From positions 1-64,000 of the forward strand of contig CALDGQ010000010.1 of assembly GCA_937941765.1 (NCBI GenBank): 64,000 nt of DNA. Direction: 5' to 3'. The notes under the pieces are model-generated. The model was not told where the DNA came from. It did no database searches and was given only the letters and a program-made list of their open reading frames with translations. Of the stretch, positions 173 to 50,496 are shown piece by piece. Source of the DNA: an uncultured Saprospiraceae bacterium. Lineage in GTDB: Bacteria > Bacteroidota > Bacteroidia > Chitinophagales > Saprospiraceae. How positions within the stretch are numbered: the first letter of the stretch is position 1; the number at the start of each line of letters is the position of its first letter. The position numbers and the translations under genes are program-made.

Positions 173-1423
173 TCACACAAACATCTGTTGCAATAAGCCT
201 TTTTTAAAGTTTTCCATTTGGGTAATCTGGTCGGATACTTTTTTGATTCGTTGGTCTAGAGTAATAAGGAAATTAGCTATTTTTTTCTGCTCAGGCACAC
301 TAGGCATTTCCCATTTAAGTTTTAAAAATTCTTTTTTACTCATAACTCTATTTCGGCCAGCTCCACCAGGTGAAATTACATCTAACTGAAAGCGAAATAT
401 TTTTTGAATAAAAACAAATTGGAAGTATTCATGAATGGCTATTTCTCTATTAAAGGTGTATGTAGGAAATCTATGAGAAACTAAACCTCCCTCATCTTCT
501 TTCTTAACTTTTGCTATTGCACCTTCCCAAGCAAAAGTAATATTGACTATTAGGTCATTTTCTTTTACCTCAAAAAGCTTTTCCATCATAACTTTATTCG
601 GATCAAAATTAGGTTTTTGAAATGTTCCTTTACAATGGCTTCGAATACCTATTGCTAAATAATTTGATTTGGGTTTATTTACTTCTCTAATTGTAGGAAT
701 TAAAAACTCCCCTAATCGCTTCTCTTCCCACTTCTCAAACGCTCCCCCATCCTCTTTCTTAAACCGAATCTCCTGACTAAAAATCTGTTGCATCACGCCT
801 TTTTTATATTCCTCCAATAAGGCTTTTTTGCGGCTGACTTGTTGTATTTTTTTGTCAATGGCGGAGAGGAAGGTGGCTATTTTTTTTTGTTCGGGTAGGG
901 ATGGGAGGTTGATTTTAAGTTTTTTAATATCATCCATATCTAGTTTCCCAGCCCCAATTCCAGTTCCAACTACTTTACTTAGCAAAAAGTGTTGTTTTGC
1001 TGAAAACCATTGATATAAAAACTCTGAATTAGATAGATCATTTAATGTTATTGATTTTAAATCTTGATTAAATGCGACATCTTTTGAGGTTATTCCCACG
1101 GGAATTTTATTGTACAACATACTACCTCTAACTAAAATTAAGATGCTACCTTTTAAAGAAAGTTTTGATCCATTTTTTAATCCCTCCAATGTTATTGTCC
1201 TTTCAGATTTTGAATAATATTTTCCACGCATAGATACCGCACTTATCCAAGGAATATCTCCATCCCAAAATTTATCATTTTCCTTAGATGGTGTTCCTCC
1301 AGATTTAAATTCAGCAATTTGTTCTAGATTTATTACCTGTATATTATCTGCAAAGTCTCTAAATCTCAATCCAGGTCCCACTTTCTTCTTTTTCTTCCCC
1401 TTCTTATTTTCCGTTTTAACCAT
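173..1423 (-). CDS. hsdS: Type I restriction-modification specificity subunit HsdS
   Basis: A 416-residue protein with the duplicated layout of HsdS: two target-recognition domains, each followed by a conserved helical spacer. The first spacer reads EQKKIATFLSAIDKKIQQV at about residues 178-196 and the second, EQKKIANFLITLDQRIKKV, is near the C-terminus; both continue into a K..L..YKKG/FKKGLLQQ segment. The first recognition domain has the typical IPWISA. HsdS sets the DNA target sequence of the HsdM/HsdR complex. It lies about 80 bases downstream of hsdM on the same strand. The lysine-rich N-terminal stretch (KKGKKKKK) before the first domain is unusual, so the true start could be slightly downstream. 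The family call is secure. Confidence 0.93.
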   Translation of the reverse strand: MVKTENKKGKKKKKVGPGLRFRDFADNIQVINLEQIAEFKSGGTPSKENDKFWDGDIPWISAVSMRGKYYSKSERTITLEGLKNGSKLSLKGSILILVRGSMLYNKIPVGITSKDVAFNQDLKSITLNDLSNSEFLYQWFSAKQHFLLSKVVGTGIGAGKLDMDDIKKLKINLPSLPEQKKIATFLSAIDKKIQQVSRKKALLEEYKKGVMQQIFSQEIRFKKEDGGAFEKWEEKRLGEFLIPTIREVNKPKSNYLAIGIRSHCKGTFQKPNFDPNKVMMEKLFEVKENDLIVNITFAWEGAIAKVKKEDEGGLVSHRFPTYTFNREIAIHEYFQFVFIQKIFRFQLDVISPGGAGRNRVMSKKEFLKLKWEMPSVPEQKKIANFLITLDQRIKKVSDQITQMENFKKGLLQQMFV

Positions 1424-1503
1424 TTTATATATTTTAAATCCGCCAAAAGCGAATGAATGTTAATGTATTGTTGAATTTAGCTATTGAAAATAGGTTTTTC
1501 CAA

Positions 1504-3063
1504 TTAAAAAGGAGCTTCAATTCCCAACTCTTTACAAAATCCAGCAATTTCCTTGTCGGTTTTGACCATCTCTTTATTGATGGATTTAATTTCTTTTGCT
1601 ACTGCTTCCAAGTCCACTGGTTCTTCTTCTTCAAAAGTATCGACATATCTTGGGATGTTGAGATTGTAATCATTTTCTTCGATTTCTGCGATGGTGGCGA
1701 CATGACTGTATTTGTCTTCTGCAGTTCTTTCTTTGTAGGTGGTGATGATTTTTTCAACATCCGCTTCCCGAAGATGATTTTGTGTTTTTATTTTTTCAAA
1801 ATGCTGACTGGCATCAATAAATAACACATCTTTTTCGTTTTCTCGTTTTTTCTTCAATACCAATATACAAGTCGGGATACTAGTTCCATAAAAGATATTG
1901 GCAGGCAATCCAATGACGGTGTCGAGATAATTTCTTTCCTTGATCAAAAACTCACGGATATGTCCTTCCGCTGCACCACGAAACAGCACACCGTGTGGCA
2001 ATACAATCGCCATGGTTCCTTTGTCATCGAGTTGGTGAATCATGTGTTGTAAAAAGGCAAAATCTGCTTTTGTTTTTGGTGCTAATTTTCCATAAGCCGA
2101 AAAGCGATCATCGGTCATAAACAATGGACTTGCGCTCCACTTGGCAGAAAAAGGTGGATTGGCAACGATGGCATCAAAACGCAAATCGATGTGTTGTGGT
2201 CTTTCCAGTGTGTCTTCATTTTTGATGTCAAAACGTTTGTAATGTACATCGTGCATGATCATGTTCATGCGACACAGGTTGTACGTTGTTGGATTTTTTT
2301 CTTGTCCATAAAAACCAGCGACTTCTTTTACCTCTCGTGCTACCCGTAGCAACAACGATCCAGATCCACAAGTAGGGTCATAGACATTTTTCAATTTCTT
2401 TTTTCCGACCGTCACCAGTTTTGCCAACACTTTACTTACTTGTTGTGGCGTATAAAATTCCCCCGCTTTTTTTCCTGCACCGCTCGCAAATTGTCCAATC
2501 AGATATTCATATGCATCACCAAGTACATCACTTTCATCATTGGCGATATCAAAATCGATTTCATCCAAGTGGGAGAGTACTTTGACGATGAGTTCATTCT
2601 TATCATTTTCAGATTTCCCCAACTTACTACTGGTCAAATCCAAGTCTTCAAATAGATTTCCAAAATCTTCTTCACTTTCCGCACCCATCGTACTTTGCTC
2701 GATACCCGCCAATACTTTCGCCAAGTCACCGAGGATAAATTTATTTTTTCCACCAGCATTCCCACGTCTTGCTAGTTCACTAAACAACTCCGATGGTTTT
2801 AAGAAAAATCCCAACGCATCAAGTGCCGCTTCTTTCACCGCACTCATATATTCCTCTTCTTTTTTATGTCCTTCAAGATCTTGAAAAGTCAGTTTGTCTG
2901 GTTTCAATATTTCATTGGCATACAAATCCATCTTCGTACTCAGGTATTTGTAAAAGATAAAACCAAGGATGTAATCTCTGAAGTCGTCGGCGTCCATTTT
3001 GCCTCTGAGTTCGTTGGCGATGTCCCATAGTTTTTGTTGGAGGTGTTGGTTTTGTTCTGTCAT
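1504..3063 (-). CDS. hsdM: Type I restriction-modification methyltransferase HsdM
   Basis: A 519-residue N6-adenine methyltransferase. The N-terminal helical HsdM domain (about 5-150) is followed by the catalytic domain. This has the SAM-binding motif DPTCGSG at residues 229-235 and the catalytic motif NPPF at 302-305, and GEFYTPQQV at about 201-209 is typical of HsdM. It methylates the target adenine chosen by HsdS, protecting host DNA. Length is normal for the family and all key motifs are intact, so it should be active. It starts 16 bases after the upstream membrane-protein gene, which suggests one transcript for the envelope proteins and hsdMS. No hsdR is visible; it may lie left of the window. 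Confidence 0.95.
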   Translation of the reverse strand: MTEQNQHLQQKLWDIANELRGKMDADDFRDYILGFIFYKYLSTKMDLYANEILKPDKLTFQDLEGHKKEEEYMSAVKEAALDALGFFLKPSELFSELARRGNAGGKNKFILGDLAKVLAGIEQSTMGAESEEDFGNLFEDLDLTSSKLGKSENDKNELIVKVLSHLDEIDFDIANDESDVLGDAYEYLIGQFASGAGKKAGEFYTPQQVSKVLAKLVTVGKKKLKNVYDPTCGSGSLLLRVAREVKEVAGFYGQEKNPTTYNLCRMNMIMHDVHYKRFDIKNEDTLERPQHIDLRFDAIVANPPFSAKWSASPLFMTDDRFSAYGKLAPKTKADFAFLQHMIHQLDDKGTMAIVLPHGVLFRGAAEGHIREFLIKERNYLDTVIGLPANIFYGTSIPTCILVLKKKRENEKDVLFIDASQHFEKIKTQNHLREADVEKIITTYKERTAEDKYSHVATIAEIEENDYNLNIPRYVDTFEEEEPVDLEAVAKEIKSINKEMVKTDKEIAGFCKELGIEAPF

Positions 3064-3079
3064 TATTGTCTCAGTTAGT

Positions 3080-3682
3080 TTAGTCTGTTTTATTTGCTTG
3101 TAAGATAGGGGATGTTTTATTAATATCTCCAGTTAGTTTTGGGGTAAGAAATTCTGCTTTTAGTGTAAGGTTTGCATTCTTTGAGAACTCTAGTATTTGC
3201 TCAAATTCACGTTTGATCCCATCATTGTATGTGAACTTATAAAGTCCAACTAATTGATCTATGTTGATCCGTTTTATTGTGATATTTTGATTAAAAGTGC
3301 TACCTGAGGGGAAATGGCGTCTTATATCAGTGTATTCCTTAAATCCTGGTAGAGCTACATTTTTAAGATTGTAAAGATTTCCACCAGAGTTTGTAAATTC
3401 AATATTGAGTTGATTACATGGTTCTCCCTCCTTGCAATTTATCCAATTAATGTCAGCTTGGAGAAAAGGTTTTTTGGATTCTCGAAACTCCTTAGTAAAT
3501 AGAGCAACCATTTCTTTATTTTCCCCATATTTAATTTTTAAACTTCTTGCTTCATAAGCGAACCAAACAGTCACCAGTATTCCAATAATCGCAATGTATT
3601 TATGAATGTGGGAAATGTTCTTGTGAATATGACACAAAATCTTCCATATCGTTTTGAAAATATTTTTAGCAATGTCTATCAT
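3080..3682 (-). CDS. Single-pass membrane protein of unknown function in the restriction-modification operon
   Basis: A 200-residue protein with an N-terminal transmembrane helix (YIAIIGILVTVWFAYEA, about residues 28-44) preceded by a basic, histidine-containing segment, then a soluble domain rich in beta strands. The soluble part contains INCKEGEPCNQLNIEFTNSGG, which looks like an immunoglobulin-like or DUF-type beta-sandwich, but I do not recognise a named family. Its ATG overlaps the stop of the upstream SPOR-domain gene (TAATG) and its stop is 16 bases before hsdM. It is therefore translationally coupled into the operon. No function can be assigned; a membrane-tethered accessory role is possible but is inference. 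Confidence 0.8.
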   Translation of the reverse strand: MIDIAKNIFKTIWKILCHIHKNISHIHKYIAIIGILVTVWFAYEARSLKIKYGENKEMVALFTKEFRESKKPFLQADINWINCKEGEPCNQLNIEFTNSGGNLYNLKNVALPGFKEYTDIRRHFPSGSTFNQNITIKRINIDQLVGLYKFTYNDGIKREFEQILEFSKNANLTLKAEFLTPKLTGDINKTSPILQANKTD

Positions 3683-4437
3683 TAGTTAAGTCTAGTATTA
3701 TTTGTATCGTACGAAACAATAAAACAATCCTTTATAGGAGAATTGGATATTAATCTTTTAACTACCTCTTTTGCTTGAGCTTTCGAAGAGAAAGTTTTTG
3801 CAGTTACGTACCTGAATGAATATATGGCTGAATTTGAGTTTGGTTCTTCTACTAAGTTAATAGAGATAAAGTCTTGAATCCTATCTAACTCAGACTTGGA
3901 AATTTTCGAGGAAGAAGCCATTATTTGAATTTTATAAAATGCTGATTTATCCCATAATCTTTCTTTTTCCGATGGAGTAATTGTATTTGGTGGTGTGCTT
4001 GGATTATTTGATTCAGGAGGTAACCCAGGAGGACTTGGTCTAACCTTGTAAATTGTTTTTGTTATTGGCTTTGCAACTGATATGTCGCTTCCCTTTGCTA
4101 CGTAAGAATGAGGACTCTCTGATCTTTCATTGAGATTAGTTATACCCAGTTGTTTTGTTGGATCAATAAGTATATGGAAGCCTTTATTTGTTTCAATTTG
4201 AAAGACTGATCCTCCAACTTCTTGTTCAATTTTCTGTAATTCAGATTTTGTTTGTTCATTGCTCAGTACATGAATTTGTGTGTATGTAATTGGTGATAAA
4301 AGGAGATCATCTTTTTCGATCATTTTTTTCTTTGTAAGTACTTCTTTACCGTTATAATTATTATGATAATATTTCTCGATACAAAATCCAACATTATAAA
4401 TACAGCAAAAAAGTAAAAAGACAATTATCTTTTTCAT
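3682..4437 (-). CDS. Exported SPOR-domain-like protein heading the restriction-modification operon
   Basis: A 251-residue protein with a clear signal peptide (MKKIIVFLLFCCIYNVGFC). A middle region with a proline-rich linker (RPSPPGLPPESNNPSTPP) leads to a C-terminal module of about 75 residues. That module starts FYKIQIMASSSKIS and ends with KEVVKRLISNSPIKDCFIV, the beta-alpha-beta pattern of SPOR/FtsN-like peptidoglycan-binding domains. SPOR domains bind denuded glycan strands at the septum. The gene overlaps the next by one base and is the first gene of the leftward operon that includes hsdM and hsdS. An envelope protein in that position is unexpected. The SPOR assignment rests on pattern and length only. 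Confidence 0.7.
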   Translation of the reverse strand: MKKIIVFLLFCCIYNVGFCIEKYYHNNYNGKEVLTKKKMIEKDDLLLSPITYTQIHVLSNEQTKSELQKIEQEVGGSVFQIETNKGFHILIDPTKQLGITNLNERSESPHSYVAKGSDISVAKPITKTIYKVRPSPPGLPPESNNPSTPPNTITPSEKERLWDKSAFYKIQIMASSSKISKSELDRIQDFISINLVEEPNSNSAIYSFRYVTAKTFSSKAQAKEVVKRLISNSPIKDCFIVSYDTNNTRLN

Positions 4438-4758
4438 GGGGTAGTAGTTTTAATGATTCCGAAATAAATAAGTAGCGTCTCCAAGTTGTTGTGTTTGAAA
4501 ACGTATAATACATACCACAAAACAAATTTTGAAATGATTTGAGCGGGGTAGTAGTTTTTATCCTGTTAGGTTGCTAAAGTGTAGGTTCTGCTAAAATACT
4601 TATTATTCAAGAAGAAATAAATAATATATGTAAATTATTTAAAATATAATTTACAATTTTCAACAACGAAATTGGTGGTTTATAGAATTTATAACTCCAA
4701 AATTAGATACCATATTTAATTTTAGTAGATTGTACTTATAGAATTAAAAGAATAAGTA
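4438..4758. other. Divergent intergenic region between the RM operon and rhuM
   Basis: An AT-rich gap of about 320 bases without a gene, holding divergent promoters for the leftward operon and the rightward RhuM gene. A direct repeat GGGGTAGTAGTTTT occurs at about 4438-4451 and again at about 4546-4559. No clear -7 motif or operator could be assigned. Confidence 0.4.
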
Positions 4759-5757
4759 ATGCAAGACCAGAACATAATCATCTACAATACTACCGATGGA
4801 AAAGCATCTGTTGTGCTTTACGCCAAAGACGGTGATGTATGGATGAATCAAAATCAACTGGCGGAACTTTTTGACACCTCTAAACAAAACATTGGTCAGC
4901 ATATAGCTAACATATTGGAAGATAAGGAGTTATCTCAAGATCCAGTTGTAAAGAAATACTTTACAACTGCTGATGATGGGAAGAATTATGAAGTGACTTT
5001 TTATGCTTTAGATATGATTCTTGCGATTGGATTTAGGGTGAGAAGTAAGCGAGGAATACAGTTTAGAATATGGGCTAATCGAAATTTGAAACAATTTATG
5101 ATCAAAGGGTTTGTCATGGATGACGATCGTTTAAAAAATCCTGATGGAAGACCAGATTACTTTGATGAATTGCTTGCACGAATTCGCGATATACGTGCCT
5201 CAGAAAAAAGATTTTATCAAAAAGTGCGTGAACTTTTTGCGCTAAGTAGTGATTATGATGCTACTGATAAAGCAACTCAAATGTTTTTTGCAGAAACACA
5301 AAATAAACTGCTATTTGCTGTTACGGAAAAAACTGCTGCAGAGATTGTAATGTCAAGAGCAAATTCTGATAAACCTAACATGGCACTTACTTCATGGAAA
5401 GGTTCTGTTGTTCGCAAGCAGGATATTTTCACAGCAAAAAATTATCTAACTGAAGATGAAATTGATAGTCTCAATAGATTAACGGTAATATTCTTGGAAA
5501 CTGCTGAATTAAGAGCAAAGAATAGGGAGGACCTTACTGTGAAATTTTGGAAAGAAAATGTAAATAAAATGCTTGAATTCAACGACATGAGAATTTTATT
5601 AGATGGTGGAAGTATTAGTAAAGCTCAAATGGAAAATAATGTTAGAGCAATTTATTCTGAATTTAATACTAAAAGAAAAGAGTATAACGCTAAACTAGCC
5701 GATGAAACTGATTTGAAAAACATTGAAAATGCGATAGAGAAATCAAAGGAAAAATGA
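4759..5757 (+). CDS. RhuM family protein (virulence RhuM / putative DNA-binding cofactor)
   Basis: A 332-residue member of the RhuM family. It starts with IIIYNTTDGKASVVLYAKDGD, and MNQNQLAELFDTSKQNIGQH (about 29-48) is the helix-turn-helix-like segment of the family. This is followed by KYFTTADDGKNYEVTFYALD and the highly conserved RSKRGIQFRIWANRNLK. The family is named after a Salmonella pathogenicity-island gene. It is repeatedly found inside or beside type I restriction-modification loci, where its biochemical role is not settled; toxin or DNA-binding roles have been proposed. Here it is divergent from the hsdMS operon. Length is full and there is no truncation. Confidence 0.88.
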   Translation: MQDQNIIIYNTTDGKASVVLYAKDGDVWMNQNQLAELFDTSKQNIGQHIANILEDKELSQDPVVKKYFTTADDGKNYEVTFYALDMILAIGFRVRSKRGIQFRIWANRNLKQFMIKGFVMDDDRLKNPDGRPDYFDELLARIRDIRASEKRFYQKVRELFALSSDYDATDKATQMFFAETQNKLLFAVTEKTAAEIVMSRANSDKPNMALTSWKGSVVRKQDIFTAKNYLTEDEIDSLNRLTVIFLETAELRAKNREDLTVKFWKENVNKMLEFNDMRILLDGGSISKAQMENNVRAIYSEFNTKRKEYNAKLADETDLKNIENAIEKSKEK

Positions 5758-5871: not shown

Positions 5872-6654
5872 CTAAGCCCCTTCCTTCAATCCTTCCTCCC
5901 GATTCTTCTCCATAGTAATCTTCTTTTGATAACGACCTTGCACAATATCCACCAGTACCATAATAAAAAGAATAAAATAGAAAGTGGTTTTACTCATTGG
6001 AACGATTTCGTTACCAAAAATCTTGAGGTGAGCGAGGTGACCACCTTCTGTAATTAACATGATACCTACGACGAAGAGGACGAAGAGACCAAGCACTTCA
6101 TACATTCGATTTTTCTGCAAAAAATTGGAGACCACTTCTGCCATCACGATCATCAAAACACCACTGATGACGATAGCTGCAGCCATTACCCAAAACACAT
6201 CGGTCAATGCAATGGCACTCAAAATAGAGTCGAAGGAGAAAACTAAATTCATGATGATGATCATAAAAAGTACGGAATTTACAGAAGCTGTTTTTTTCTC
6301 TTCTGTTGCATCATGTTCGTGCAAAGACATCATGTGCCAGATTTCTTTCATCGCCGTGTACATAATGAAAATACCACCGGCCAAAACAATCAAACTATGT
6401 CCGTTGAAATGTCCTTCAATAAAAGTGGATTTAAAACCGAACAATTCATTTTGGAATTTTTCTATCAAATTCACCAAAATAAAAAGCAAAGCAATTCTCA
6501 AAAAGATGGCTAAGCCGATCCCTACTTGTCGTACCCATTTTTGCTTGTCTGCTGGTGCTCTTTTGGATTCTAGTGATATATACAAAAGATTGTCAAAACC
6601 AAGAACGGCTTGAAGCAATACCAATAGTGCGAGTGTAATTAAATTTTCTACCAT
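5872..6654 (-). CDS. TerC-family integral membrane protein
   Basis: A 260-residue polytopic protein with about seven hydrophobic helices. It carries the family signatures: LQAVLGFDNLLYISL near the N-terminus and LVFSFDSILSAIALTDVFWV near residue 140. The acidic residue in each FDN/FDS motif lies within a helix and is thought to take part in metal-ion transport. TerC/YkoY relatives are linked to manganese or tellurite handling and to loading of metals onto exported proteins. The gene stands alone on the minus strand. No yybP-ykoY manganese riboswitch is visible upstream on its strand; the upstream DNA is instead filled by repeats. The family call is good and the substrate is unknown. Confidence 0.88.
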   Translation of the reverse strand: MVENLITLALLVLLQAVLGFDNLLYISLESKRAPADKQKWVRQVGIGLAIFLRIALLFILVNLIEKFQNELFGFKSTFIEGHFNGHSLIVLAGGIFIMYTAMKEIWHMMSLHEHDATEEKKTASVNSVLFMIIIMNLVFSFDSILSAIALTDVFWVMAAAIVISGVLMIVMAEVVSNFLQKNRMYEVLGLFVLFVVGIMLITEGGHLAHLKIFGNEIVPMSKTTFYFILFIMVLVDIVQGRYQKKITMEKNREEGLKEGA

Positions 6655-6736
6655 AATATATGTGTCTCAATTGAAATGCGAATATAGTGGAATAGAAATT
6701 ATTAGAAAAAGAAATGGGCTATTAATACTTGATAGC

Positions 6737-6840
6737 GACGGTTGACGGTGAACGGCTGACGGTAAATGGGGAGTACGCTTGGAGCACGTGAGTATACACA
6801 CTCTTCGCGAGCTCCGTTTACGGTCAACCGTTCACCGTTG
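6737..6840. repeat. R1 palindromic intergenic repeat, copy 1
   Basis: An inverted-repeat element built from short GACGGTTGACGGTGAACGG units on the left and the complement (GGTCAACCGTTCACCG) on the right, enclosing a variable centre of about 50 bases. Related copies are at 6985-7127 and 50387-50486. The arms are strongly G/C-rich compared with the surrounding DNA. Confidence 0.85.
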
Positions 6841-6875
6841 TTGGGAACTATTCCCACTAAAACCATGTTATATTA

Positions 6876-6941
6876 TTGTATCAAGAGACCGACCAGGTCA
6901 GCAACCGAGCTACAAACGTCACGGTGCTAAAAACGATACGG
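6876..6941 (+). promoter_or_regulatory. Compact SAM-clan riboswitch-like aptamer
   Basis: The segment has the conserved parts of the SAM-I/SAM-IV riboswitch clan in the right order. P1 is TTGTATC (6876-6882) pairing with GATACGG (6935-6941). Then come AAGAG, a short GAC/GTC hairpin in the P2 position, the invariant GCAACC (6901-6906), a P3 helix ACCG/CGGT, and GGTGCTAA (6923-6930). It lacks the long kink-turn P2 and a P4 hairpin, so at 66 nt it is much smaller than standard SAM-I aptamers. On the plus strand the next gene is the metallophosphatase at 7223, with an R1 repeat in between. The call rests on motif and covarying-helix recognition, not on a model search. Confidence 0.62.
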
Positions 6942-6984
6942 ACTTGTCTGTCAAAAAAGTTTGAATAAATAAATGATAAGTTTG

Positions 6985-7127
6985 GGATGGGGGACGGGGA
7001 ACGGTTGACGGGGAACGGCGGGGAACGGTGAACGGGGGACACGCGATGAGTGCGTGAACTCGCGTACTCCTCGCGTATCGCCGTTCACCGTCAACCGTCA
7101 ACCGTTCACCGTTCTACCGTTCACCGG
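6985..7127. repeat. R1 palindromic intergenic repeat, copy 2
   Basis: A second, longer copy of the R1 family. The left arm contains GGGGAACGGTTGACGGGG and GGGAACGGTGAACGG; the right arm contains CCGTTCACCGTCAACCGT twice with small changes. The centre (ACTCGCGTACTCCTCGCG) is shared with copy 3 near 50440-50455. Copies 1 and 2 bracket the SAM-clan-like element. Confidence 0.85.
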
Positions 7128-7222
7128 TAATTTTTATAACATTAAGTTGAATTAAAAATAGGGGAATTTAGTAATGACATTCTTAGGTTCAAAAACAAAT
7201 AAATAAATAAACTAACAAACAA

Positions 7223-8128
7223 ATGACGCAACTAGACTTCATTGGCGACATCCACGGATACGCCGACAAATTAAGACAACTCCTCCTAAAAATGGAATAC
7301 GGGGTAAAAGGCAAAGGCTATCGACATAGTAGTCGGAAAGTAGTATTTGTCGGTGATTTTATTGACAGAGGACCGCATAATCCAGCAGTAGTGGAGATCG
7401 CTAGAGCGATGGTGGAGGCAGGTGATGCTTTTGCAGTGTGTGGGAACCACGAACACAATGCGATTGGTTTCAATACACTTGTCAAAAATGGGTATCTCCG
7501 GCCACATACTGTTAAAAATTTCAAACAACATTCTACAACGCTCTTGCAATACCATGGCAATCAGAAAGGATATGATGATGCAATAGCTTGGTTTAAAACC
7601 TTGCCATTGTTTATTGAACAGGAATCCTTTAGAGCGGTACATGCGACATACGATGATCGTTCGATCAAGACTTTAAAACGATTGACCGGAAATGGAGTGT
7701 TAAGTGATGATCAGTATTTGGAGTTGGTCAATAAAGATTCAGAATTATATAAAGCAGTAGAAATTACTTGTAAAGGAAAAGAAATTGCATTACCAGAAGG
7801 GCAAAGTTTTTTGGATAAAGATGGAACCGAAAGATTTGATATAAGATTGAAGTGGTGGTTAGATACTCAAAAAACAAGTATCAAAAATTTGAGCATTATT
7901 GAGGATATCGAGATTGATGAAAACAAATTTCTACAGACGGAATCAGATTACTATAAAGAAGAGGAGAAGCCTATTTTCTTTGGTCATTATTGGTTGAAAG
8001 GAGAGCCAAACTTGTATCGAAATAACGTTTGTTGTCTTGACTATTCTGTCGCAAAAGATGGGTATTTATGTGCTTATCGATTTAATGGAGAAGAGGAGTT
8101 GTCGAATGATAATTTGGTTTTTATATAA
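7223..8128 (+). CDS. Calcineurin-like metallophosphoesterase
   Basis: A 301-residue protein with the metal-binding signature of the calcineurin-like phosphoesterase family. GDIHG lies at about residues 8-12, GDFIDRGPHNP at about 49-59, GNHEHNA at about 81-87, and downstream histidines include the one in FFGHYWLKG near residue 253. PrpA/PrpE-like protein phosphatases and ApaH-like diadenosine tetraphosphatases share this set, and the HxxGPH pattern fits the bacterial PrpE type. It probably acts in the cytosol on phosphoprotein or nucleotide substrates; the exact substrate cannot be read from sequence. It is a single-gene unit preceded by the R1/riboswitch-like region and followed by a terminator-like repeat. 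Confidence 0.85.
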   Translation: MTQLDFIGDIHGYADKLRQLLLKMEYGVKGKGYRHSSRKVVFVGDFIDRGPHNPAVVEIARAMVEAGDAFAVCGNHEHNAIGFNTLVKNGYLRPHTVKNFKQHSTTLLQYHGNQKGYDDAIAWFKTLPLFIEQESFRAVHATYDDRSIKTLKRLTGNGVLSDDQYLELVNKDSELYKAVEITCKGKEIALPEGQSFLDKDGTERFDIRLKWWLDTQKTSIKNLSIIEDIEIDENKFLQTESDYYKEEEKPIFFGHYWLKGEPNLYRNNVCCLDYSVAKDGYLCAYRFNGEEELSNDNLVFI

Positions 8129-49561: not shown

Positions 49562-50401
49562 ATGATTAAAGTTGGTCAGCATGCTGATCTAGAAGCAATA
49601 AAAATTACACCGCAAGGAATGTATCTGGACGGAGGTCCATATGGTGAAGTACTTCTTCCCAATAAATACATTCCGGAAGATTTAGAACCCGGAGGATCCC
49701 TTCGGGTTTTTCTTTATACCGATTCTGAAGATCGTGTCATTGCTACTACTTTAGAACCCAATGCGGTTACTGGAAAATTCGCAGTAATGCAAGCAGTAGA
49801 TGTCAATAAAGTAGGGGCATTTCTAGATTGGGGATTAGAAAAAGATCTCTTCGTCCCATTTTCCCAACAAATGGTTGACATGGAAAGAGGTCGATACTAT
49901 TGCGTCTATGTTTACAACGACGAAATCACAGATAGAGTAGTGGGGAGTGCGAAAATTCACAAGTTTGTTAGCGAACCACCAAAAGATTTAGAAGTCAATC
50001 AAAAAGTGGAGATTCTTGTGGCTCAAACGACGGATCTTGGTTACAAAGCAATTGTAGATCAAAGTTATTTTGGTCAACTATACCATAATGAGATTTTTGG
50101 TAAAATTTATGTCGGCCAATATCTAGTCGCGTACATAAAAAAGATACGAGAGGATGGAAAAATTGATTTAGTTTTTCAAAAAACTGGTTTCAAAAATGTA
50201 ATTGATGATGTTTCTCAAATGGTGCTAGATACGATTCAAGAAAATGATGGTTTCCTTCCACTCAATGATAAAAGTGCTCCTGAAGATATTTATAGAGAAT
50301 TTCAATTCAGTAAAAAGATCTTTAAAAAAGCAGTAGGGCAGTTGTATAAAAACAAGTTGATTACGATTGAGAAAGATGGGATTAAGACGGTTGACAATTA
50401 A
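49562..50401 (+). CDS. CvfB-like S1 RNA-binding protein
   Basis: A 279-residue protein of the CvfB/YitL family. N-terminal S1-like domains (YLDGGPYGEVLLPNKYIPED, then VNKVGAFLDWGLEKDLFVPF at about 80-99) are followed by a winged-helix C-terminal domain (APEDIYREFQFSKKIFKKAV). CvfB proteins bind RNA and influence virulence or stress genes in other bacteria. It begins one base after the giant SprB-repeat gene, so it is coupled to it. Its last codons (TVDN and stop) come from the R1 repeat at 50387-50486, which overlaps the end of the gene. Confidence 0.87.
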   Translation: MIKVGQHADLEAIKITPQGMYLDGGPYGEVLLPNKYIPEDLEPGGSLRVFLYTDSEDRVIATTLEPNAVTGKFAVMQAVDVNKVGAFLDWGLEKDLFVPFSQQMVDMERGRYYCVYVYNDEITDRVVGSAKIHKFVSEPPKDLEVNQKVEILVAQTTDLGYKAIVDQSYFGQLYHNEIFGKIYVGQYLVAYIKKIREDGKIDLVFQKTGFKNVIDDVSQMVLDTIQENDGFLPLNDKSAPEDIYREFQFSKKIFKKAVGQLYKNKLITIEKDGIKTVDN

Positions 50402-50486
50402 CGGTGAACGGTTGACGGGGAGCAAGTGTGCAGACGCAATCCTCGCGTACTCCCCGTTAACGGTCTATCGTCTACCGTTCACCGTT
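50387..50486. repeat. R1 palindromic repeat, copy 3, overlapping a stop codon
   Basis: Left arm GACGGTTGACAATTAACGG and GTGAACGGTTGACGGGG, right arm CGGTCTATCGTCTACCGTTC/ACCG, centre with ATCCTCGCGTACTCC like copy 2. The repeat starts within the last four codons of the CvfB-like gene and contains its stop at 50399-50401. Confidence 0.85.
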
Positions 50487-50496
50487 AATAAAAAAA

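What the first reader, a model, noticed from the sequence alone, without database searches (positions are those of the whole stretch)
6876..6941. Minimal SAM-clan riboswitch-like aptamer in an orphan position
Seen: P1 TTGTATC/GATACGG (two G-U wobbles at the outer end), AAGAG, GCAACC, P3 ACCG/CGGT and GGTGCTAA in SAM-I/SAM-IV order, but P2 is only a three-base hairpin and no P4 hairpin is present. Known: standard SAM-I aptamers exceed 100 nt and carry a kink-turn P2 and P4; SAM-IV lacks P4 in the core. Inferred: this is a reduced or previously unmodelled member of the clan. It lies between two R1 inverted repeats, and the nearest downstream gene is a phosphoesterase, not a methionine gene, so it may be a relic or serve an unannotated RNA.
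Basis: partly seen in the sequence, partly recalled or inferred. Interest (0 to 1): 0.68.

Follow-up and report, generated by a model that had tools for sequence, protein, structure and literature searches.

The report
SAM-I/IV riboswitch with changed downstream gene
This is an ordinary, complete and still conserved RNA switch of the known SAM-I/IV family that should sense S-adenosylmethionine; what is unusual is that a sister species keeps the same switch in front of a different gene.

Summary
The feature is real but longer than reported. Window 6873-6968 (+) is a full-length match to Rfam RF01725, the SAM-I/IV riboswitch (53.2 bits, cut-off 41.1). It is not a relic: in the one same-genus genome listed, 88 of 96 aptamer positions are identical, against 72 of 164 fourfold-degenerate sites in two genes of the locus. 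A promoter-like pair of blocks and a 10-pair alternative helix are kept as well. The downstream gene is not: the sister genome has two small CxxC proteins and two large genes before the same phosphoesterase. Non-methionine neighbours are common: of 103 loci (Rfam- or pattern-selected, not a census), motif search finds methionine-cycle genes after 19 and none of the motifs tried after 77. Verdict: a new member of a known family, probably a working cis-regulatory leader. Its present target and direction of switching are unproven; SAM binding was not tested.

The parts
6842..6872 (+). promoter-like pair TGGGAACTATT (6842-6852) and GTTATA (6867-6872), conserved at the same spacing in the sister genome
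   Evidence: identical runs of 11 and 6 at identical offsets, 26 of 60 upstream bases identical in all; 0 of 20000 shuffle pairs reach the longest run. No sigma-factor class assigned; the sigma-70 scan lists no + strand site
6873..6968 (+). SAM-I/IV riboswitch aptamer, full length
   Evidence: RF01725 53.2 bits, gathering 41.1, model 1-99 of 99; only match in this 81.6% complete genome
6878..6939 (+). P1: 6878-6882 with 6935-6939 (5 pairs)
   Evidence: covariation
6887..6899 (+). P2: 6887-6890 with 6896-6899 (4 pairs)
   Evidence: all 4 pairs have two-sided changes across 22 sequences
6900..6928 (+). P3: 6900-6902/6926-6928, 6905-6907/6922-6924, 6909-6910/6918-6919
   Evidence: 100% of cells paired
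6941..6952 (+). 3' hairpin (called P5 in SAM-IV): 6941-6943 with 6950-6952
   Evidence: 89.4% of cells paired
6913..6963 (+). PK-2 pseudoknot: 6913-6917 (CAAAC) with 6959-6963 (GTTTG)
   Evidence: loop-tail complementarity across 100 loci exceeds all 60 swapped controls; in the window's own columns of A1 only 46.1% of cells pair
6939..6984 (+). candidate alternative helix 6939-6948 with 6975-6984 (10 pairs); excludes the 3' hairpin and uses the last P1 base
   Evidence: minimum-free-energy fold; both sister-genome changes in it keep pairing; 195 of 5000 shuffles of the tail reach its score
6973..7008 (+). ATG and 11-codon open frame at the foot of the alternative helix; start conserved in the sister genome, rest repeat-derived; probably not a real gene
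   Evidence: read; sister frame of 38 codons
6985..7128 (.). dispersed inverted repeat (R1), downstream copy
6737..6838 (.). dispersed inverted repeat (R1), upstream copy
7223..8128 (+). metallophosphoesterase (PF00149; NCBIfam resemblance to Pnkp/PrpE/ApaH, all below cut-off), nearest co-directional gene
   Evidence: orthologue at +7404 from the aptamer in the sister genome
5872..6654 (-). TerC family membrane protein, divergent; also upstream of the aptamer in the sister genome, there with a Tll0287-like gene between

Best explanation
A member of the SAM-I/IV riboswitch family in the 5' leader of a + strand transcript. Shown: aptamer architecture (P1, P2, P3, 3' hairpin, PK-2), family membership by covariance model, and purifying selection. 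Inferred: it binds SAM; binding stabilises P1, the 3' hairpin and PK-2 and so prevents the alternative 10-pair helix 6939-6948/6975-6984, which in the unbound state takes the 5' strand of the 3' hairpin and pairs the G of the AUG at 6973-6975 and the codons after it. The switch therefore sits at a start-codon region. In this genome the region is followed by a dispersed repeat and then by a metallophosphoesterase, the likeliest present target by co-transcription. Whether SAM turns it off, as is usual in the clan (recalled), or on cannot be decided from sequence. My split: SAM-I/IV aptamer 0.95; still functional 0.85; switching between PK-2/hairpin and the alternative helix 0.4; phosphoesterase as target 0.35.
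For: RF01725 full length above cut-off. 96.3% of cells paired and 68 two-sided-change cells against 19.0 in shuffles, over 22 sequences. PK-2: 100 loci, native 10.24 against 8.79 (sd 0.19) with tails swapped. 88 of 96 aptamer positions identical between sister genomes against 35 of 84 and 37 of 80 fourfold sites; seven of the eight changes are unpaired and the eighth keeps a pair. Promoter-like blocks kept at fixed spacing. The alternative helix is in the minimum-free-energy fold of both species, and both sister-genome changes in it keep pairing.
Against: No ligand binding or expression data. Only two genomes are known to carry this arrangement. The stretch is not unusually stable: 9 of 200 shuffles fold as well (z -1.61), and the computed folds show P2 but a shifted P1 (window) or neither P1 nor P3 as in the family (sister). 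The alternative helix alone is reached by 195 of 5000 (window) and 263 of 5000 (sister) shuffles of a 30-base tail, and across 97 loci the comparable test is only weakly positive (12.29 against 11.68, sd 0.21). The anti-P1 platform common in the family is absent here (best 5 pairs, 91 of 100 shuffles as good; score 11.0 against a swapped mean of 13.06). A repeat hairpin and 254 bases separate the aptamer from the phosphoesterase. The open frame at 6973 is short and repeat-derived.
Confidence: 0.6

Rival explanations
1. The aptamer once served a gene now lost and is decaying: a relic.
For: The downstream gene differs between sister species; the frame after the conserved ATG is repeat-derived in both.
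Against: 88 of 96 identical against 72 of 164 fourfold sites; promoter-like blocks kept; no change in any P1, P2, P3 or PK-2 pair.
Confidence: 0.07
2. It works as a short stand-alone SAM-sensing RNA, perhaps acting in trans like the Listeria SreA riboswitch RNA (recalled; listing only), with no cis target.
For: Promoter-like block, aptamer and about 20 bases of tail are conserved while the next gene is not; a repeat hairpin follows in both species.
Against: Co-directional genes follow in both species. The only terminator-like site in 6650-7240 is at 7115-7129, one found against 0.6 expected in shuffles. No trans target was looked for.
Confidence: 0.12
3. The native target is the CxxC small protein (kept in the sister genome, lost here), and the phosphoesterase has merely come to lie next to the aptamer.
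For: CxxC proteins begin 131 and 593 bases after the aptamer in G001 and 285 bases after it in G306, another genus. The family occurs in only 9 of 398 genomes and is not found in this one. R1-like repeats lie on both sides of the CxxC pair in the sister genome.
Against: The other CxxC copies (8 loci examined) have no RF01725 match nearby. This genome is 81.6% complete, so the absence is not certain. Whether the block was lost here or gained there is unknown; its 899 aa gene has only a 29-32% identical counterpart elsewhere in this genome.
Confidence: 0.25

Closest known systems
SAM-I/IV riboswitch, Rfam RF01725
   Same: Full-length model match above cut-off, single short P2, 3' hairpin and PK-2, conserved core.
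   Different: Followed by a phosphoesterase instead of a methionine-cycle gene; the anti-P1 platform common among relatives is missing.
SAM-IV riboswitch, RF00634
   Same: PK-2 and a hairpin 3' of P1; no P4 (description in PMC6890682, passages seen).
   Different: P2 is not split into P2a and P2b and is too short for PK-1; the best match of the clan is RF01725. The separate RF00634 score was not printed.
SAM-I riboswitch (S box), RF00162
   Same: Shared order of core elements.
   Different: No kink-turn P2, PK-1 or P4; no RF00162 match at E <= 0.001 in this genome.

Membership tests
SAM-I/IV riboswitch (RF01725) | covariance-model score above the curated cut-off over the whole model | tested here: met
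   53.2 bits against 41.1, positions 1-99 of 99
SAM-I/IV riboswitch (RF01725) | one undivided P2 helix, no PK-1 | tested here: met
   4-pair P2 with a 5-base loop; criterion from PMC6890682
SAM-I/IV riboswitch (RF01725) | hairpin after P1 and PK-2 between the P3 loop and the 3' tail | tested here: met
SAM-I/IV riboswitch (RF01725) | P4 helix between P3 and P1, as PMC6890682 describes for the class | tested here: not met
   J3/1 is unpaired in my structure. Not treated as defining: the RF01725 consensus structure has no such helix, and by eye 1 of 22 aligned members shows one
SAM-I/IV riboswitch (RF01725) | binds SAM and discriminates against SAH | not testable with these tools
   needs in-line probing or calorimetry
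SAM-IV riboswitch (RF00634) | P2a/P2b and PK-1 | tested here: not met
   P2 of 4 pairs
SAM-I riboswitch (RF00162) | covariance-model score above cut-off | tested here: not met
   0 matches in the genome at E <= 0.001; RF01725 alone reaches its cut-off here
trans-acting SAM riboswitch RNA (SreA type) | short terminated transcript with a trans target | not tested
   no transcript data; one weak terminator-like site

The most novel reading that the evidence does not exclude
In Bacteroidota the SAM-I/IV aptamer is a reusable SAM-sensing 5' module with exchangeable cargo. It controls a large set of small-protein genes beside the methionine cycle, a set I did not find described in the listings. The window copy is a case caught after an exchange: promoter-like block, aptamer and platform stayed under selection while the cargo changed from CxxC proteins to a phosphoesterase, or the reverse.
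Probability: 0.25. Interest if true: 0.6.

Novelty: new member of a known kind. Interest (0 to 1): 0.34.

Why it matters
For this locus, modest: it moves the element from 'odd reduced aptamer' to a complete, selected SAM-I/IV riboswitch and explains the features that looked strange. The wider point could matter more: many of the sampled Bacteroidota SAM-I/IV riboswitches precede recurrent small-protein families. One representative each of five of the larger clusters (23, 17, 13, 8 and 5 loci) has no Pfam match at E <= 0.01, so SAM may control functions in these bacteria outside the methionine cycle.

Tried and rejected
Anti-P1 expression platform for the window: rejected (best 5 pairs, 91 of 100 shuffles; sister 81 of 100), although it is general among relatives. 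Second SAM-I/IV or SAM-I copy in the genome: none found (genome 81.6% complete). CxxC gene elsewhere in this genome: none found (best E 0.6). Aptamer near other CxxC copies: none in 8 loci. A close aptamer relative elsewhere in the order: 396 genomes searched by DNA gave only this genome and one 28-base partial match; G001, which matches, does not appear there, so that draw is incomplete. The sister's 899 aa gene as a simple orthologue here: only 29-32% identity. Papers: one search listed 20 of 64 papers naming SAM-IV riboswitches; (three terms) found none; two searches found 2 and 5 papers for the family's Rfam name or number; two searches listed 2 and 1, and one search listed 5 (orphan-riboswitch terms), none with a title on this family's targets in Bacteroidota. 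Of all these I saw listings only, except passages of PMC2864571 and PMC6890682. The 2014 crystal-structure paper is not held; what I know of it is recall.

Rows dropped before counts: alignment A1 holds 22 of the 31 Rfam-found loci L001-L031; left out were L002, L006, L008 and L030 (divergent, SAM-I-like or near a contig end) and L019, L020, L022, L023 and L027 (near-duplicates). One search left out L002, L006 and L057, loci without the core pattern, and duplicates (113 items to 100; one, L096, has an empty tail and scores 0). One search left out L002, L006, L057 and L096, those without the core or a full tail, and duplicates (97 left). One search set aside 6 duplicates and 4 with under 300 bases downstream; its 103 still hold L002, L006, L057 and L109. 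The 113 items are 31 Rfam-found loci and 82 pattern matches. Two of 18 pattern loci checked did not match RF01725 (L057, L109). Cluster sizes include near-duplicates.

Full report
What is there. Rfam's covariance models give one riboswitch in the 64 kb window: RF01725, SAM-I/IV, at 6873-6968 on the + strand, 53.2 bits against a cut-off of 41.1, the whole model matched (repeated on the local stretch). It is the only RF01725 match in the genome, and there is no SAM-I match at E <= 0.001; the genome is 81.6% complete. P2 has four pairs, not three. The missing P4 is not an anomaly: the RF01725 consensus line has none, and by eye 1 of 22 relatives in alignment A1 has one. The cryo-EM paper on SAM-IV says that in SAM-I/IV the P2 helix is undivided and PK-1 is lacking, but also that the class has a P4 compared with SAM-IV (PMC6890682, passages seen). 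The 2010 paper that reported the variants says that they lack the internal loop in P2 (PMC2864571, passages seen).

Is it structure, not chance. On 22 of the 31 Rfam-found loci (so the set leans to the model), the 20 pairs of P1, P2, P3 and the 3' hairpin are formed in 96.3% of cells, with 68 cells changed on both sides against 19.0 in shuffles; every slid register falls to 48.0% or less. With the window's PK-2 columns added, PK-2 itself pairs in only 46.1% of cells; I put this down to the pseudoknot sitting at shifting positions in loop and tail. A register-free test on 100 loci gives a mean loop-tail score of 10.24, against 8.79 (sd 0.19, largest 9.20) in 60 swaps of tails between loci. Some loci, many of them flavobacterial, show only 3-4 pairs there. 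Plain thermodynamic folding is no support: 118 bases fold with z -1.61, 9 of 200 shuffles doing as well, and the computed folds do not show the family's P1 register.

Is it alive. The one same-genus genome listed (G001) carries the aptamer on the same side of the divergent terC gene, with one extra gene (Tll0287-like) between. Over 96 bases, 88 are identical; seven of the eight differences lie outside helices and one turns A-U into G-U in the 3' hairpin. In two genes of the locus the same comparison gives 35 of 84 (terC) and 37 of 80 (metallophosphoesterase) identical fourfold-degenerate sites. So the aptamer is under strong purifying selection. Just upstream, TGGGAACTATT and GTTATA are kept at identical offsets, 26 of 60 bases being identical in all; 0 of 20000 shuffle pairs match the longer run. 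I read this as a promoter, without naming the sigma factor; the simple sigma-70 scan found nothing on the + strand.

What it could control. In the window the next + strand gene is a metallophosphoesterase 254 bases on, past a dispersed inverted repeat. In G001 the repeat is followed by two CxxC proteins (145 and 76 aa), an 899 aa gene without a Pfam match, an 1109 aa UvrD-type helicase with a PD-(D/E)XK domain, and then the phosphoesterase orthologue at +7404, all on the same strand (the pair looks like AddB/AddA, which is recall). A related CxxC protein follows the aptamer in G306, a different genus. The CxxC family is rare, in 9 of 398 family genomes and not found in this one; 8 other CxxC loci examined carry no RF01725 match. 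So the next gene changed between sister species, and which arrangement is older is open.

How it may switch. Across 97 loci the 3' tail is complementary to the locus's own P1 5' strand well beyond swapped controls (16.51 against 13.06, sd 0.35), so an anti-P1 element is the usual platform. The window lacks it. Its minimum-free-energy fold instead shows a 10-pair helix 6939-6948/6975-6984 that excludes the 3' hairpin and encloses PK-2's 3' strand. The sister genome keeps all ten pairs through two substitutions, A-U to G-U and G-U to G-C. By nearest-neighbour energies without PK-2, P1+P2+P3 with nine of these pairs scores -20.2 and the aptamer form -16.2 kcal/mol; SAM and PK-2 would have to tip the balance. 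Shuffled tails reach the helix score in 195 and 263 of 5000, and a similar test across loci is weakly positive (12.29 against 11.68, sd 0.21). This step is a proposal. The AUG at 6973-6975 begins 9 bases after PK-2 and lies at the foot of this helix; the frame it opens is 11 codons here and 38 in G001, mostly repeat sequence, so I do not claim a gene.

How unusual is the context. RF01725 matches occur in 31 of 398 family genomes, 29 over the cut-off. A pattern scan of named genomes stopped at 119 stretches, of which 80 were listed and used, mostly Bacteroidota by title; 16 of 18 checked match RF01725 over its cut-off. Of 103 distinct loci with at least 300 bases downstream, motif search finds metK 13, metH 3, metF 2, metX/Y/B 1, a MoxR-like ATPase 3, an N-formylglutamate amidohydrolase motif 4, and none of these in 77 (motifs recalled and not exhaustive, sample selected and truncated, a few non-members included). 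Clustering of downstream ORFs gives recurrent small-protein families in 23, 17, 13, 8 and 5 loci beside metK in 20, near-duplicates included; one representative of each of these five has no Pfam match. A non-methionine neighbour is therefore no sign of decay.

Verdict.

Noticed in passing
L003/L033 (G014), L084, L130: SAM-I/IV aptamers precede a MoxR-like AAA+ ATPase; in G014 a diverged S-adenosylmethionine synthetase-like gene lies about 3.5 kb downstream on the same strand.
   Followed up: partly
L052, L060, L102, L119; L009 (G306): Two or three SAM-I/IV aptamers within a few kb, some in tandem or divergent, beside small unknown genes.
   Followed up: no
downstream ORF clusters (e.g. L074, L052, L077, L124): Recurrent families of about 80-150 aa proteins after SAM-I/IV aptamers; these four representatives have no Pfam match and no NCBIfam match reaching its cut-off.
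   Followed up: partly
window 6737-6838, 6985-7128, 50397-50489: Dispersed inverted repeat with GTTGACGGTGAACGG arms: 60 sites in this genome, 13 in the sister genome, against 2 and 0 for the control pattern.
   Followed up: partly
window 173-5757: Type I restriction HsdS (173-1423) and HsdM (1504-3063) genes and a RhuM-family gene (4759-5757; PADLOC candidate PDC-S05) on the far side of terC.
   Followed up: no
L029 (G084): SAM-I/IV aptamer with what looks like an extra hairpin between P3 and P1 at the P4 position, ahead of metH.
   Followed up: no
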